In this document: positions 8,113 to 14,085 of the stretch, one piece after another
How the letters are laid out: each line of letters begins with the position of its first letter
Numbering within the stretch: the first letter of the stretch is position 1
From: a virus
Reading direction: 5' to 3' (one strand)
Length of the DNA: 24,317 nucleotides
Virus record (IMG/VR): IMGVR_UViG_3300009788_000293
Location: 1-24,317 of that record
Notes under the pieces: generated by a model
Seen by the model: the letters and a program-made list of their open reading frames with translations, nothing else
Database searches by the model: none
What the model was told of the DNA's origin: nothing
Program-made: the position numbers and the translations under genes

Positions 8113-9077
8113 CAGAACAATTCGGTCGATTTTGGAAATTAAAAATAAAGGATCGGGAGGGAGCTTTTGATTTTGATATTGAGCAGGATGGATTTGGAAA
8201 TTCTTTAAGATGCCAATTTGAAATAAATGCCAGCAGGGATCTCAGATTTTATAGCGGAGTGATAAAGGTCTTTAATCTGGAGCCAACGAAACGAAAGCAA
8301 CTTGTCTTCAACCAATTGAGGGAGGATTTTGGAAAAGGGCCTCTTGCCCAACTTACGGCTGGATACCAGGAAAACAATGGATTGATTTTTAATGGTGCTG
8401 TTCATAGAGGCTACACTATAAGAGAGATACAGGGCGGTGATTATATTACGATATTGCAGGTAGGCATCCCCTTCAAGTATGACAAAAAAATAACCATTGA
8501 TCCGCAACCGATAAACGATAACAACTTGCTTGGGTTTCTCAAGAAAGCTATTGATAAGATACTGAATCAACCGGACAGAATATCAATAAACAAAGCCCAA
8601 AATTATGAAACTAATTTTGAGACGGCAATAAATGACTTTTTATCGACAGGCAACATAGCGAATAAAACGCTTGGATATCATGGGACATCCATCAAAATAA
8701 TAGGAGATATTGAAGAAGAATTCAATATCAAGTTTTTTCAGGATCATAACGGTTTTAATGTGGTTGGAGGAAAATTTGCAACAAGCTCAGATCCGAGGAC
8801 TCCAATTACATTGCCACAGGGAAACACTGTTCCGGAGATAACGTTTAATAAAGAAACGGGCTTGATAGGCTCCCCGATCTATACAGACACAGGAGCAAAG
8901 TTTTTCGTTTATTTGCGGCCAGAAATTAAAATGTTCCAATTCGTTAGAGTCGAGTCTGATGTTTTGACAAAGAATGTTTCGATACAATCATTGATCCATA
9001 GAGGTGATAACCGTGGTGATGAATGGTTTTCTGAGATCGATGCGTCTAATTTCAATCAGCTGATAAGAAATAAATAA
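8109..9077 (+). CDS. Baseplate hub protein (gp27-like)
   Basis: 322 residues, beginning in an ATGA overlap with the plug gene. The N-terminal domain (FWKLKIKDREGAFDFDIEQD, LRCQFEINASRD, YSGVIKVFNLEP, then LTAGYQENNGLIFNGAVHRG) follows the first tube-like barrel of phage hub proteins, where 'I.v.NL......L' and 'v.l.AGY......iF.G.i' are usual. A helical middle part and a second barrel (FQDHNGFNVVGG, then NKETGLIGSPIYTDTGAKFFVYLRPEI) follow. Hub trimers connect the tube to the central spike. Family by pattern and strong context. Confidence 0.75.
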   Translation: MTEQFGRFWKLKIKDREGAFDFDIEQDGFGNSLRCQFEINASRDLRFYSGVIKVFNLEPTKRKQLVFNQLREDFGKGPLAQLTAGYQENNGLIFNGAVHRGYTIREIQGGDYITILQVGIPFKYDKKITIDPQPINDNNLLGFLKKAIDKILNQPDRISINKAQNYETNFETAINDFLSTGNIANKTLGYHGTSIKIIGDIEEEFNIKFFQDHNGFNVVGGKFATSSDPRTPITLPQGNTVPEITFNKETGLIGSPIYTDTGAKFFVYLRPEIKMFQFVRVESDVLTKNVSIQSLIHRGDNRGDEWFSEIDASNFNQLIRNK

Positions 9078-9670
9078 TGTTTGAAGAAGAATTTATTGAA
9101 GCGTTTGAGGGGCTTTCTGACTTAAGGGAGGCAAATAAATTTCATGTCGCCATTGGGTTTTTTCAAGAATACACTGCTCCGGCTGTTGAGTCAGACTCAG
9201 AGGGTTTGAGGTTTTGCACTCTAAAGCTTCATTACAAAGGCGAGGAATCAGAAGACATTGCTATTTTAGGTGTGCCCTTACTCTACATCGGGAATTCTAA
9301 TGGGATCGTGGATTTTGGACTTACTGAAGGTGATCAATTGCTGGTTGTGTTCACCGATAGAACGCTGGAGCAATGGAAAGCGGCAGCCGGGAATATACCC
9401 CAGGATCTTAAAAATCCTGTCAGGAATAGCATCAATCATGCGATAGCGATACCAGTCGTGACAACTCACGGAGCAAGTACAGCGGCATCAAACCCTGTTG
9501 CAGCCGGGGCATTGGCGTTAATATCGAAAAACGGAGACAAGGTTGAAGTAGGAAACGGGATACTGGTAGAGAAAACGGGAGGCGGAAAAATTGAGATAAG
9601 TAGCTCTGAAATAAAATTGACCATGGGAACAGTGATGAAAATAACAGCAACCGGGGTGGAGGTTACATAA
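9077..9670 (+). CDS. Baseplate central spike protein (Gp138 N-terminal OB fold)
   Basis: 197 residues, TAATG overlap with the hub gene. Residues 20-110 have the OB-fold pattern of Gp138-like spikes (FHVAIGFFQEY, RFCTLKLHYKG, IAILGVPLLYIG, VDFGLTEGDQLLVVFTDRTLEQW; note the 'G..vgD..ll.f.eR....W' element). After residue 145 come short strand repeats (LISKNGDKVEVGNGILVEKTGG, IEISSSEIKLTMGTVMKITATGVEV), a typical triple-helical needle tip. The next gene encodes a PAAR-like cap, which fits onto such a needle. Confidence 0.8.
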   Translation: MFEEEFIEAFEGLSDLREANKFHVAIGFFQEYTAPAVESDSEGLRFCTLKLHYKGEESEDIAILGVPLLYIGNSNGIVDFGLTEGDQLLVVFTDRTLEQWKAAAGNIPQDLKNPVRNSINHAIAIPVVTTHGASTAASNPVAAGALALISKNGDKVEVGNGILVEKTGGGKIEISSSEIKLTMGTVMKITATGVEVT

Positions 9671-10002
9671 TGCCAAAAGTATTGACGATAAACGCAAACA
9701 TACAATGTGGACACGCTGGGAATTATGTTTTCCTTCCAGGAACTGGGAAGATAAAAATAGATGCCAATGAAATTGTCACAGAATCAATGTTGGCAGCTGC
9801 GACCATTGCGGGATGCACTAATACTGTTCTTCCAGAAACTCCCTGACTTCTTGTTTCTACGATCGCTTCAGGGCAAGCGACAAAACTGAAATCTGGAGGT
9901 ATAAAGGCAATGCTTGAGACAATGATTGTCGTAACCAATGGAACGCAACCAAATCTGACTACAGTAATCGCCCCAGGCCAAACTAAATGGGATAACGTGT
10001 AA
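9670..10002 (+). CDS. PAAR-like spike tip protein with in-frame TGA (candidate selenoprotein)
   Basis: 110 codons if the TGA at 9844-9846 (codon 59) is read through. The ATG overlaps the spike stop and has a GGAGG site. N-terminal MPKVLTINANIQCGHAGNYV and the later IAGCTNTV are typical of PAAR-like (DUF4280-type) tip proteins, with a C-x-H pair (C13, H15) and C49. In this family, as I remember it, another Cys follows about ten residues after that Cys, in a '(T/H)PC' context; here the text is PETP-TGA-LLVSTIASGQ, so the TGA takes the Cys place. The frame then stays open for 51 codons to TAA at 10000-10002, which overlaps the next ATG. If not read through, the product has 58 residues and loses half its fold. 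Selenocysteine, near-cognate readthrough or a TGC-to-TGA error are all possible. Confidence 0.7.
9847..9886 (+). promoter_or_regulatory. SECIS-like hairpin after the in-frame TGA
   Basis: TCGCTT (9863-9868) and AAGCGA (9875-9880) form a perfect 6-bp stem with loop CAGGGC. GTTT (9853-9856) and AAAC (9883-9886) can form an outer 4-bp stem across an internal loop. The loop starts 22 bases after the TGA, close to the distance in E. coli fdhF mRNA (18 bases), and carries AGGG where fdhF has AGGU. The bulged U of the fdhF element is not seen, and the first loop base is C, so the match is partial. The TGA is followed by C, a leaky context. Confidence 0.4.
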
Positions 10003-10385
10003 TGGATCTAAAAATTGAAATAATAAGAGACGGGCAAGAAAACTTTTTATATCACGATATTGTCTTTGAAAACGGAAGGCTGGCCACCGTAGATGAAAAG
10101 GATGAAATAAAAAATAGATTAATTTGTGGTCTGAGCGTCTTTCTTGGTGAAAATTTTACTAATCCGAGTTACGGCACCGATTATTATAATAATGTGTTTG
10201 GCCGTGAAGTTACCGAAACTGTTGTGATAGACGAGCTAAAAGCTCAGATATTGCAAACCAGGGGAGTTACTGGACTAAAGACATTTGATTTGACCAGAGC
10301 GGCAGGATCAAGAAACGCGCAATTAGTAGCTCAAGTACAGACAACTCAGGGAGAAATAGACCTGACAACCCCGATCCCGATTTAA
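10002..10385 (+). CDS. Baseplate wedge protein, gp25-like
   Basis: 127 residues in a TAATG overlap with the tip gene. GRLATVDEKDEIKNRLICGLSVFLGENFTNPSYGTDYYNNVFG is the core of gp25-like / W-type wedge proteins: a strand, a helix with 'I.~~i...L....GE...~~~~G~d~~', and an aromatic turn. The protein is usually a sheath-like initiator at the baseplate. It is followed by the J-like gene, the standard order (W then J then I). Confidence 0.75.
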   Translation: MDLKIEIIRDGQENFLYHDIVFENGRLATVDEKDEIKNRLICGLSVFLGENFTNPSYGTDYYNNVFGREVTETVVIDELKAQILQTRGVTGLKTFDLTRAAGSRNAQLVAQVQTTQGEIDLTTPIPI

Positions 10386-10388
10386 GCC

Positions 10389-11537
10389 ATGGCAGGACTG
10401 ACATCAACAGGATTCGAAGCGAAACGGTTTAATGATATCTTAGAAGCCATTAAAACTCGCTTGAGATCAACTTTTGGAAGTGGTATAGATACCAATGAGG
10501 ATGAGATCGTAATGCAGATTGTTAACCCTGTGGCATTAGAGATTGAGGAATCATGGGGCTCAAAGTTATTGTATGACGCCATGAACCCAGCAGCAGCAGA
10601 AGGACCTGCATTAGACAATGTTGGCGCAATAACGGCCACAAAAAGACTGGAAGGCTCAAAAAGCACTGTTTTAGTCAATGCGACTGGGAACGAATTTGCC
10701 ACTATTCCTGTAGGTTTTCAAAGGGGAGTCCAGGACACTGGAGAATTATTCGAGAATTTGATCTTGCGAACATTGCCGGCAGTCGGGTCCCAACCTTTAC
10801 AATTTACGATGGAATCTATCGATGAGGGACCTATTGCTGCTATAGCTAATACTTTGAATCAAGGTTCTTTGCCTTCCGGGATCACAGACGTAGTGAACCC
10901 AGGTGACGCGACACTGGGAACGCTCGATGAAACTGATGAAGAATACAGAATATCGAGAAAAGTGAGGCTTCAGGCATTAGGAGCTGGAACGGTTGTTTCA
11001 ATAAAAGCGGCATTGTTAGAGGTATCGGGTGTCACATCTGTTTCGATATTAGAAAATGATACTAGTTTATATGACGCCAATGGCCAGGCCCCACATTCAA
11101 TTCGGTGCATAATTTTAGGCGGAGCCGATCAGGATATTATTGATGTAATCGGAGCAACCAAGGCAGCTGGGACCGGGACTGTTGGAACTGAAAGTGGAAC
11201 GTTTACTGATCCAGTTGACAGCCAGACCTTTCCGATAAATTTTGACAGAGTTACAGAGATTGATATTTATGTCGATGTCGTTGTGACTTCAAAAGGTACG
11301 AGTTATCCTGTCACCGGAGATCAAGACATTGAAGATGCAATATTGGCCCTAATTTGGGAGCCTGGCGGAGACGTTACATTGCCAACATTGCAAAATGCTG
11401 TCACTTCGATTCCTGGAATTCTGGCATATACTTTATTTTTTGATACTTCAGCGACTCCTGTAGTCGATGTGACGATATCAATAGACACAGACGAGTTGGC
11501 AGATTTTGATTCGACTAGAATAGGAGTAAGCTCATGA
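10389..11537 (+). CDS. Baseplate J-like protein (gp47-like)
   Basis: 382 residues. N-terminal FNDILEAIKTRLRSTFGSGIDTNEDEIV and ALEIEESWGSKLLYDAMNPAAAEGPALDNVGAI are the hallmarks of J-like baseplate proteins (the 'A.G..Ld.lg.l.gi.R' element, here LDNVGAITATKRLEGS). DETDEEYRISRKVRLQALGAGTVVSIKAALLEVSGVTSVSILEND is the usual middle part ('ETDEeyR.R......~g~gt~~ai~~al~~v~GV~~v~v~eN'). The C-terminal beta-rich part contacts the W and I proteins. This is a confident call. Confidence 0.88.
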   Translation: MAGLTSTGFEAKRFNDILEAIKTRLRSTFGSGIDTNEDEIVMQIVNPVALEIEESWGSKLLYDAMNPAAAEGPALDNVGAITATKRLEGSKSTVLVNATGNEFATIPVGFQRGVQDTGELFENLILRTLPAVGSQPLQFTMESIDEGPIAAIANTLNQGSLPSGITDVVNPGDATLGTLDETDEEYRISRKVRLQALGAGTVVSIKAALLEVSGVTSVSILENDTSLYDANGQAPHSIRCIILGGADQDIIDVIGATKAAGTGTVGTESGTFTDPVDSQTFPINFDRVTEIDIYVDVVVTSKGTSYPVTGDQDIEDAILALIWEPGGDVTLPTLQNAVTSIPGILAYTLFFDTSATPVVDVTISIDTDELADFDSTRIGVSS

Positions 11538-12175: not shown

Positions 12176-13567
12176 ATGGGACGAACAAAACCATTTGGGA
12201 TAGCTGAAGCCAGTAGAACCGATATAACTCAAGCAATTAGAAGAGTCGGGGTAAATTCTTTCGGGACAAAGGGATATTTTAGAGAATACTTCAATCAAAA
12301 CATGTTTGAAGTCGGGCAAGAACATGTTTTAGGCACGTCTGCACAGGTGGCGAATGATGACGCTACAATCCATTACGATGATACAGCTGGTGTATTCAAG
12401 GACAAGGCAGGGGGAACCGTAACATTGCTAGATTTAGAGCGTGTCGGAGTCGTTGTCGATACTGCAGGCGATGATATTGATTTTCCCAGCGCGAAGGAAA
12501 TAGTATTTGTGCCCTATGATGCCATAGATCTCGATTCTAATACTTTGAATTTACCCGGGACCTACTCAGGAGAATTAAGGGCAGATAATGGAACAATTGT
12601 ATTGAATGGCACAAGCCATGGATTAAGGATAAATGGTACCGCCATTGTTGATACTTCGTCTATGACCGCTGGCACAGTTATAGTAAATGGCATATTATTG
12701 AGAGCATCTATAAAAGTGCAATGGTCGTTTCCGCAATTAATTGGTTCTGGATTAACTATCACCGGCGCAGGAGTTCCGGCTCTGGCAGTATTAAATAATA
12801 CGGATGTTGCTTATTTTGATGATGGTATAGGAGAACTTAGAACATACCGTTTTAACGGCTTAACATGGAGTCTGGTTGGGTCGGGGTTAGCGATTGGCCC
12901 AATAAGCACTCCTGCCCTGGCTGCATTGAATAGTACTGATGTTGCTTTTATTGCTGATACTCAAGAAGAACTTAGAACATATCGCTTTAACGGTTCGGTG
13001 TGGGCCTTAGTCGGTTCTGGATTAGGTATATCAGGCATAGCCAATCCTGCCCTAGCTGCATTGACTGGGACCGATGTTGCATTTGTTGATGCCGATTTGG
13101 AAGAGCTTAGAACCTATCGTTTTGGTGGCTCAACGTGGAGTTTAGTGGGATCTGGATTGTCTTTCGCTGACATAACGACTCCTGCCCTGGCTGCATTGAA
13201 TAGCACTGATGTTGCCTTTACTGATGATGACAGCGATGAACTTAGAACCTATCGATTTAACGGCTCAACGTGGAATTTGGTTGGGTCTGGTTTGCCAATT
13301 TCTGGAGGCATAGGAGTGCCTGCTTTAGCATCTTTAAATGGTACGGATGTCGTTTTTATTACTGCAACTTTGGAAAATCTTGAAACCTACCGGTTCAACG
13401 GCTCAACGTGGAGTCAAGTGGGATCTGGATTGGCAATTTCTGGAATTGGACAACCTGCACTGGCAGCAATAAATGGTGTGGATGTAATTTTTATTGATCA
13501 GACTCTGGAAAGTTTGAGAACCTATAGATTCGGATTTAGCATTGAAAGTCCCTATCGTCCTTTTTAA
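12176..13567 (+). CDS. Tail fibre / receptor-binding protein with C-terminal six-bladed beta-propeller
   Basis: 463 residues; AAGGA site 5 bases before the ATG. Residues 1-60 are the probable attachment end. Residues 60-185 have short Gly/Asn/Thr-rich strands (LPGTYSGELRADNGTIVLNG) like a beta-solenoid or trimeric shaft. From residue 190 six copies of a 45-residue unit follow: GSGLxI...PALAAL..TDVAF.D.....ELRTYRFNGSTWSLV. The sixth copy lacks the last strand (ends GFSIESPYRPF), while the segment just before copy 1 (IKVQWSFPQLI) looks like that missing strand; this is how beta-propellers close their ring. The place after the gpI-like gene is the usual fibre place. Binding partner unknown. Confidence 0.8.
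   Translation: MGRTKPFGIAEASRTDITQAIRRVGVNSFGTKGYFREYFNQNMFEVGQEHVLGTSAQVANDDATIHYDDTAGVFKDKAGGTVTLLDLERVGVVVDTAGDDIDFPSAKEIVFVPYDAIDLDSNTLNLPGTYSGELRADNGTIVLNGTSHGLRINGTAIVDTSSMTAGTVIVNGILLRASIKVQWSFPQLIGSGLTITGAGVPALAVLNNTDVAYFDDGIGELRTYRFNGLTWSLVGSGLAIGPISTPALAALNSTDVAFIADTQEELRTYRFNGSVWALVGSGLGISGIANPALAALTGTDVAFVDADLEELRTYRFGGSTWSLVGSGLSFADITTPALAALNSTDVAFTDDDSDELRTYRFNGSTWNLVGSGLPISGGIGVPALASLNGTDVVFITATLENLETYRFNGSTWSQVGSGLAISGIGQPALAAINGVDVIFIDQTLESLRTYRFGFSIESPYRPF
12743..13564 (+). repeat. Six tandem 135-bp coding repeats (propeller blades)
   Basis: Units begin with the GSGL codons at 12743, 12878, 13013, 13148, 13283 and 13421. The first four are exactly 135 bp, the fifth is 138 bp (one extra Gly), the last is incomplete. 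Nucleotide identity is visibly high in the TDVAF and RTYRFNGSTW parts and low in the loops (GISGIANP, SFADITTP, PISGGIGVP), the pattern expected for a duplicated scaffold with varying surface loops. Confidence 0.9.
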
Positions 13568-13929
13568 AATGACAACACAAAACCAGCCGAATGGTTATAA
13601 TCGATCGCTTCTTTTTCATTTTTCATTAAAAAATATTGCCAGCGTATTCTATGTTTTTTGGGAAGAAAATAGGTAACGAGTGCATGGGAGATGATGCCTG
13701 CAAAAATAAGGGTGTCGATTTTATCTTGAGACGGCCTCTCTCCCAAAATTGAGTTTGATTCCCTTCTGTTTAAAGCTCTGAATGATTTTGTTTGCATCCA
13801 ATCGACGCATATCATGCCAGTTAGTACAGACTGCAAAATAATATCCTGCTTATCCAATGGTTGAAAGAATTCTACTGCAAAAACACTGCTTGGAATAATT
13901 AGCAGAATCAAAAATATTGTTTTTCTCAT
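13564..13929 (-). CDS. Secreted or membrane protein of unknown function, lone minus-strand gene
   Basis: 121 residues from the ATG at 13929 (complement), chosen because an AGGAG site lies 9 bases upstream and the N-terminus MRKTIFLILLIIPSSVFAVEFF is a clean signal peptide with a likely cut after VFA. The upstream open frame to 14067 runs through a hairpin and the divergent promoter and is not used. The mature part has DWMQTKSF, ESNSILGERPSQDKIDT, a hydrophobic helix TLIFAGIISHALVTYFLP, then HRIRWQYF and a final NHSAGFVLSF. I recognise the general layout ('DwxQT...E.NpiLG..Ps...~') of small envelope proteins found in phages and proteobacteria, but no function. It ends 4 bases inside the fibre gene. 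A role in lysis or cell-surface change is possible. Confidence 0.7.
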   Translation of the reverse strand: MRKTIFLILLIIPSSVFAVEFFQPLDKQDIILQSVLTGMICVDWMQTKSFRALNRRESNSILGERPSQDKIDTLIFAGIISHALVTYFLPKKHRIRWQYFLMKNEKEAIDYNHSAGFVLSF

Positions 13930-13947
13930 CTTTTGAACTCTCCTACC

Positions 13948-13984
13948 AAAAAACCGCTCCGCAATGCCGGGAAACATTGCGGAG
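13948..13984 (-). terminator. Terminator-like hairpin in the leader of the minus-strand gene (possible attenuator)
   Basis: CTCCGCAATG (13957-13966) and CATTGCGGAG (13975-13984) form a perfect 10-bp stem around an 8-base loop. Read on the minus strand it is followed after three bases by six T (13948-13953), a classical intrinsic terminator, and then at once by the ribosome site of the minus gene. On the + strand T5 follows after seven bases, so it may also stop fibre-operon transcripts before the early promoter. Confidence 0.75.
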
Positions 13985-14026
13985 TCCCGCCTTTTTATCA
14001 AACATAAAAAAAACATGCAATAAACA

Positions 14027-14065
14027 TTGACAATCTGCAATCGTGTGCTATTATAGGTATTATAC
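14027..14065 (+). promoter_or_regulatory. Early sigma-70 promoter with direct-repeat operator
   Basis: -35 TTGACA (14027-14032), 16-base spacer, -10 TATTAT (14049-14054). A 7-base direct repeat TATTATA occurs at 14049-14055 and 14058-14064, and GTATTATAC (14057-14065) is a small palindrome. On the other strand the same repeats read TATAATA, so they could also serve as -10 elements for the minus gene. The first gene downstream encodes a ribbon-helix-helix protein, a class that binds short repeated operators, so autoregulation is likely. Confidence 0.75.
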
Positions 14066-14085
14066 AATCAGCTAAAAGAGGTGAA

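What the first reader, a model, noticed from the sequence alone, without database searches (positions are those of the whole stretch)
9670..10002. Candidate phage selenoprotein: in-frame TGA at the expected Cys site of a PAAR-like tail tip protein
Seen: the only stop in an otherwise open 110-codon frame is TGA at 9844-9846. The frame starts in a TAATG overlap with the spike gene and ends in a TAATG overlap with the wedge gene, so the full length fits the operon exactly. The N-terminal half has the C-x-H and later Cys of PAAR-like/DUF4280-type proteins; from memory of the family, the next position is a Cys in a (T/H)PC context, and here it is TP-TGA. Such Cys-to-TGA pairs are the classical mark of selenoproteins. 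If so, the tip may hold a metal with selenium as ligand, a role I do not know in any phage. The host would need SelA, SelB, SelD and tRNA-Sec, as in many anaerobic Deltaproteobacteria and Firmicutes.
Basis: partly seen in the sequence, partly recalled or inferred. Interest (0 to 1): 0.88.

Follow-up and report, generated by a model that had tools for sequence, protein, structure and literature searches.

The report
Phage spike-tip protein, probable selenoprotein
A virus that infects an unknown bacterium seems to make the sharp tip of its tail needle with selenocysteine: a stop codon (TGA) sits exactly where all known relatives have a metal-gripping cysteine, although only one such sequence has been seen and the host is unknown.

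Summary
In detail: TGA 9844-9846 is the only stop in a 110-codon frame (9670-10002) between a spike and a wedge gene. TGA is a normal stop elsewhere in the window. The frame is a real PAAR-like spike-tip gene: a profile built only from Cys relatives (Streptomyces, Rhodovulum, Deinococcus, Paracoccus; all in spike-PAAR-gp25-J operons) scores it 39 bits with TGA read as X, ungapped across the TGA, and puts the TGA on the relatives' invariant Cys; direct tblastn to S. canus gives E=9e-10. C13, H15, C49 and the TGA codon are the four invariant Cys/His positions, the expected metal site. It is also the only TGA in six frames with coding signal on both sides. Selenocysteine is the best reading, but not proven: no second TGA homolog was found, the contig is a 24-kb metagenomic fragment without host, tRNA or Sec genes, and the hairpin after the TGA (22-nt spacing, 6 bp; about 2-3% of sites do as well) breaks the strict 'G in the first two loop bases' rule. 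Main rivals: sequencing error or nonsense mutation; UGA read as Cys. I found no report of a phage selenoprotein or a selenium spike tip.

The parts
9077..9670 (+). Baseplate spike protein (N-terminal xxxxx_N domain; short beta-strand C-terminus, no HxH iron tip)
   Evidence: Pfam PF18352 E=3.3e-7; N-terminal part aligns with the spikes of L055/L056/L012 at 34-44%, C-terminal end differs
9657..9662 (+). Strong Shine-Dalgarno GGAGGT for the PAAR-like gene
   Evidence: anti-SD duplex -10.0 kcal/mol, among the strongest in the window
9670..10002 (+). PAAR-like spike-tip gene, 110 codons with in-frame TGA
   Evidence: Cys-only profile 39.0 bits with TGA as X; tblastn to S. canus E=9e-10
9706..9714 (+). 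Codons C13-G14-H15, first two predicted metal ligands
   Evidence: C13 and H15 invariant in A4, A9, A10
9814..9816 (+). Codon C49, third predicted metal ligand
   Evidence: invariant in A4, A9, A10
9844..9846 (+). In-frame TGA (codon 59) on the invariant (P)C column; proposed selenocysteine codon and fourth metal ligand
9847..9999 (+). C-terminal half of the tip protein (51 codons), coding-like and aligned to the family up to the PGQ motif
   Evidence: codon score +6.0; adds 15.6 bits to the profile match over the N-terminal half alone
9863..9880 (+). Candidate SECIS upper hairpin TCGCTT-CAGGGC-AAGCGA, loop begins 22 nt after the TGA
   Evidence: about 2-3% of positions do as well; loop fails the strict G rule
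10002..10385 (+). Baseplate wedge (gp25-like), starts in the TAATG overlap
   Evidence: PHROG 120 E=1.5e-17
10389..11537 (+). Baseplate J-like protein
   Evidence: PF04865 E=1.7e-4

Best explanation
The gene at 9670-10002 encodes the PAAR-like cap of a contractile phage spike. In the host, UGA 59 is decoded as selenocysteine by SelB and tRNA-Sec, guided by a hairpin just 3' of the codon. The selenol then replaces the usual Cys as one of four ligands (C13, H15, C49, U59) of the metal that holds the tip cone together, so that full-length tips, and probably infective virions, depend on selenium. Shown here: the gene, its family, its place in the operon, the fall of the TGA on an invariant Cys, and coding on both sides. 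Inferred: decoding as Sec, the hairpin as SECIS, the metal (zinc or iron) and the selenium ligand.
For: Cys-only subfamily profile matches the frame with X at the TGA at 39.0 bits (E about 4e-11), X falling on the invariant Cys, and 46.2 bits when Cys is put there. BLASTP to the S. canus homolog: 36% over 106 aa...AGCTN....PCL.V..I..G against ...AGCTN....TPULLVSTIASG. Five Cys relatives in the same spike-PAAR-gp25-J order. C13/H15/C49/C(U)59 are the only invariant Cys/His columns. Only TGA in six frames with coding on both sides. A random nonsense change hits this codon in about 3% of cases within the gene, and only 25 of 2367 nonsense routes over 24 other window genes go through Cys. Hairpin at 22-nt spacing, about 2-3% of sites as good; 11 of 13 true TGA stops in the window have none. 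Published PAAR work: zinc held by Cys/His at the tip is needed for function, and PAAR-like IglG uses four Cys (PMC10715212).
Against: Only one TGA sequence. The strict bSECIS rule (G in the first two loop bases) is not met by any hairpin with 4 or more contiguous pairs; allowing C9869-G9873 to pair gives loop AGG but costs 1.5 kcal/mol. The fold of the whole 60 nt is not unusually stable (z -0.72), and there is no Rfam match. Host unknown; no tRNA or Sec gene in the fragment. The closest phages (L055, L056, L012) have no PAAR gene there, so no near relative could be compared.
Confidence: 0.6

Rival explanations
1. The TGA is a sequencing or assembly error, or a nonsense mutation in one strain, of an ordinary Cys-form PAAR-like gene (TGC or TGT to TGA). 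The phage then makes a normal Cys tip, or a defective one.
For: Single metagenomic contig; no read data; no second TGA homolog. TGY to TGA is one base change. The rest of the gene is intact, as expected for a very fresh change.
Against: A random nonsense change hits this codon in about 1 of 33 cases within the gene, and this is the only interrupted coding frame in the window. A SECIS-like hairpin at correct spacing is not expected.
Confidence: 0.22
2. UGA is read as cysteine, not selenocysteine: some Desulfobacterales and Syntrophobacterales carry selC*-type tRNA-Cys, in Desulfobacterales with an opal (UCA) anticodon, and a second selB.
For: The column is Cys in every relative. Such tRNAs are described in anaerobic bacteria (PMC7609411).
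Against: Rare trait, host unknown; Sec decoding is much more widespread (general knowledge; PMC5029168). No tRNA found in the window.
Confidence: 0.07
3. Programmed termination or near-cognate readthrough: the phage makes a 58-residue N-terminal protein, with a little full-length product or a separate C-terminal peptide started at ATG 9910 behind a GGAGG.
For: UGA-C is a leaky context (general knowledge); GGAGG lies 10 nt before the in-frame ATG 9910.
Against: The 58-aa product would lack the fourth ligand and half of the fold conserved in every relative. Four of the 13 true TGA stops in the window are also followed by C. The codons between the TGA and 9910 also align with the family. GGAGG here is simply Gly-Gly codons.
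Confidence: 0.07
4. The gene is a decaying pseudogene in a spike module that no longer needs a PAAR cap.
For: Closest phages lack a PAAR gene at this place.
Against: No frameshift or other stop; codon usage intact on both sides; strong ribosome site; the relatives' invariant residues are all kept. The spike end also differs from those of the PAAR-less phages, as if tip and spike end came in together.
Confidence: 0.04

Closest known systems
PAAR-like tip protein of Streptomyces canus plasmid (NZ_CP109336, L158:2501-2839) and its Rhodovulum, Deinococcus and Paracoccus relatives
   Same: Same length, same four invariant Cys/His positions, same C-terminal GQ motif, same gene order spike/baseplate V - PAAR-like - gp25 - J
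   Different: They have Cys (a sense codon) where the window has TGA; carried by plasmids, not found in the phage collection
DUF4280 / PAAR_motif superfamily, including PAAR-like T6SS tips such as IglG
   Same: Other Cys relatives (A5) hit PF14107 and PF05488 weakly; tip metal held by Cys/His (PMC10715212)
   Different: The window protein itself has no Pfam hit; a Sec ligand is not described there
xxxxx (Phi92) and P2 gpV spikes with six-His iron tip
   Same: Metal-capped phage spike apex (PMC10715212); the window spike has the xxxxx_N domain
   Different: In those the spike itself carries the iron site; here the cap is a separate small protein and the spike lacks HxH
Bacterial selenoproteins found as Cys/Sec pairs (119 families and subfamilies listed in PMC13188914)
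   Same: TGA at an invariant Cys plus a hairpin just downstream; metal-binding Sec is proposed for some families
   Different: No phage, PAAR or baseplate protein is mentioned in that review; strict SECIS rule and second TGA sequence missing here
tRNA-Sec gene reported in Basilisk-like Bacillus phages (PMC6145125)
   Same: A phage link to selenocysteine decoding
   Different: A tRNA annotation, not a selenoprotein; unrelated phage

Membership tests
PAAR-like (DUF4280-type) spike-tip proteins | Sequence similarity to family members beyond chance | tested here: met
   tblastn E=9e-10 to S. canus; profile without the query 39.0 bits with X at the TGA; broader-family profile 22.9 bits, only non-member hit of that strength in 10,959 frames
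PAAR-like (DUF4280-type) spike-tip proteins | Conserved CxH ... C ... PC metal-ligand pattern | tested here: met
   C13, H15, C49 present; the fourth column is the TGA codon, Cys in all relatives. Met only if UGA is decoded as Sec or Cys
PAAR-like (DUF4280-type) spike-tip proteins | Gene between spike and gp25-like wedge, before J | tested here: met
   Window order equals that of L138, L143, L158, L244-L247
PAAR-like (DUF4280-type) spike-tip proteins | Direct match to Pfam PF14107 or PF05488 | tested here: not met
   No Pfam hit at E up to 10; PF14107 search of the own record empty
PAAR-like (DUF4280-type) spike-tip proteins | PAAR cone fold with bound metal | tested here: inconclusive
   Single-sequence AlphaFold2 model has pLDDT 38 and is not usable
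Bacterial selenoprotein genes | In-frame TGA aligned with a conserved Cys of at least two homologs | tested here: met
   Invariant Cys in all aligned homologs
Bacterial selenoprotein genes | TGA conserved in at least two distinct sequences | tested here: inconclusive
   None found in viral contigs, in about 800 genomes of two phyla, or in related phages; the search could not reach most Sec-rich phyla or metagenomes
Bacterial selenoprotein genes | bSECIS: upper stem 4-16 bp, loop 3-9 nt, loop 16-37 nt after UGA | tested here: met
   6 bp, 6-nt loop, 22 nt
Bacterial selenoprotein genes | bSECIS: G in the first two loop positions | tested here: not met
   Loop CAGGGC; met only if C9869-G9873 pairs, at a cost of 1.5 kcal/mol. 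The review says some real bSECIS break the model
Bacterial selenoprotein genes | bSECIS: folding energy at or below -7.5 kcal/mol | tested here: inconclusive
   -13.8 for 60 nt, -6.5 for 41 nt; z-score -0.72, not unusual
Bacterial selenoprotein genes | Host has selA, selB, selC, selD | not testable with these tools
   Window is a virus record with no host given

The most novel reading that the evidence does not exclude
The first phage structural selenoprotein: a virion whose puncturing tip holds its metal with a selenium ligand, so that the phage depends on the host's selenium supply and Sec machinery to build the tip.
Probability: 0.55. Interest if true: 0.9.

Novelty: new variant of a known kind. 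Interest (0 to 1): 0.74.

Why it matters
Known selenoproteins are mostly redox enzymes. A virion part with selenocysteine would be a structural use of selenium, would tie infection to host selenium metabolism, and would show that phage gene callers cut such tip proteins in half. It gives a testable question: do contractile phages of Sec-decoding bacteria carry Sec in their spike tips?

Tried and rejected
Direct searches of the protein in Pfam, NCBIfam, PHROGs, PDB, phages and viral contigs gave nothing useful (the tau hits in PDB are a chance match). Fixed-spacing and gapped DNA motif scans of viral contigs gave only chance matches (checked). Scans by J, hub and tip-motif alignments gave three close phages, all without a PAAR gene. 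Profile searches of 398 Pseudomonadota (two profiles) and 398 genomes of the Paenibacillus phylum gave two spurious hits with several stops. A global TGA reassignment was rejected. Single-sequence structure prediction failed. Rfam found nothing. The first probe for the family was a consensus written from memory; its hits are real records, and the decisive S. canus hit came independently from the window protein itself.

Full report
What is there. The window is a 24,317-base IMG/VR virus record without host. Frame 9670-10002 reads 110 codons, with a single internal stop, TGA at 9844-9846, and ends in TAA. It overlaps the spike gene by one base (TAATG, 9668-9672) and the wedge gene by one base (10000-10004), and has one of the strongest ribosome sites of the window. 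TGA is an ordinary stop for 13 of 41 window genes, so a changed code is excluded. No tRNA or Rfam RNA is found.

Is the frame coding on both sides? A codon-usage score trained on long frames was applied to all TGA triplets with long open flanks in six frames. The site at 9844 is the only one with positive scores on both sides (+8.0 and +6.0).

What family? The protein hits nothing in Pfam, NCBIfam or PHROGs that is significant. A probe for the PAAR-like tip family found members beside VgrG or baseplate-V genes on plasmids, and an alignment put C13, H15, C49 and codon 59 on its invariant C, H, C and PC columns. A profile of nine such members, without the window protein, picks the window frame at 22.9 bits (E=4e-5), the only non-member hit of that strength among 10,959 frames. 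Independently, tblastn of the window protein against plasmids gives Streptomyces canus, 35.8% identity, E=9e-10 (alignment). From this came Rhodovulum, Deinococcus and Paracoccus relatives. All lie in the order spike/baseplate V - PAAR-like - gp25 - J, the same as the window. A profile of these five Cys proteins scores the window frame 39.0 bits with the TGA as X, in one stretch without a gap at the TGA, with X on the invariant Cys; 46.2 bits with Cys there; the N-terminal half alone scores 23.4. The C-terminal half alone is not significant (7.9 bits, equal to the best of 500 shuffles), but in frame it adds 15.6 bits. This subfamily lacks the fifth Cys of the wider family, so the four ligands C, H, C, C/U are what is left.

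How it would work. PAAR proteins cap contractile spikes and hold a metal by Cys/His at the very tip; loss of most of these residues abolishes function in a T6SS, and the PAAR-like IglG uses four Cys (PMC10715212). Phage spikes of the xxxxx and P2 gpV type instead hold iron with six His in the spike itself (same paper). The window spike has the xxxxx_N domain but no HxH end, and its C-terminus differs from those of its nearest relatives, which have no PAAR gene. So a spike end with a separate PAAR cap seems to have been acquired in this lineage (inference). By position, codon 59 supplies the fourth metal ligand. Stopping at 58 residues would remove it together with half the fold.

Selenocysteine or not? 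For: a random nonsense change in the Cys form of the gene would hit this codon in 1 of 33 cases, and a hairpin (TCGCTT-CAGGGC-AAGCGA, 9863-9880) begins its loop 22 nt after the TGA, inside the 16-37 nt of the published model (PMC13188914); about 2-3% of window positions do as well. Against: the loop does not have G in its first two bases, the 60-nt fold is not unusual (z -0.72), no second TGA homolog was found, and the host is unknown. The field calls a single TGA sequence a candidate because of possible sequencing errors (PMC1088965). UGA read as Cys by selC*-type opal tRNA-Cys in some anaerobes is a real alternative (PMC7609411).

Literature. A 2026 review listing 119 prokaryotic selenoprotein families and subfamilies does not mention phage, PAAR or baseplate proteins (PMC13188914). 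The only phage link to Sec that I found is a tRNA-Sec gene reported in Basilisk-like phages (PMC6145125). Searches of the held library for phage-encoded selenoproteins or a PAAR selenoprotein gave nothing relevant; most subscription papers and all preprints are outside it.

Verdict. A selenocysteine-containing spike tip is the best explanation (0.6). Error or nonsense mutation (0.22) cannot be excluded without reads or a second sequence.

Noticed in passing
window 9077-9670 with L055, L056, L012: The spike shares its first 150 or so residues with the nearest phages, but its end is different, and only the window has a PAAR-like gene behind it: spike end and cap may be exchanged as one module.
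   Followed up: partly
window 9895-9912: GGAGG lies 10 nt before an in-frame ATG (9910) after the TGA; it could start a 30-residue C-terminal piece, though the GGAGG is also plain Gly-Gly codons.
   Followed up: partly
window 12176-13567: Tail-fibre-like ORF made of about 50-residue tandem repeats (YRFNGS.W.LVGSGL.I...).
   Followed up: no
window 13564-14067 (minus strand): A 167-aa minus-strand ORF without Pfam match between the tail and replication modules, whose other genes are on the plus strand.
   Followed up: no
L159, L160 (Campylobacter plasmids): Large proteins on Campylobacter plasmids contain an internal domain resembling this tip subfamily (CxH...AC..N...PC), with Cys.
   Followed up: partly
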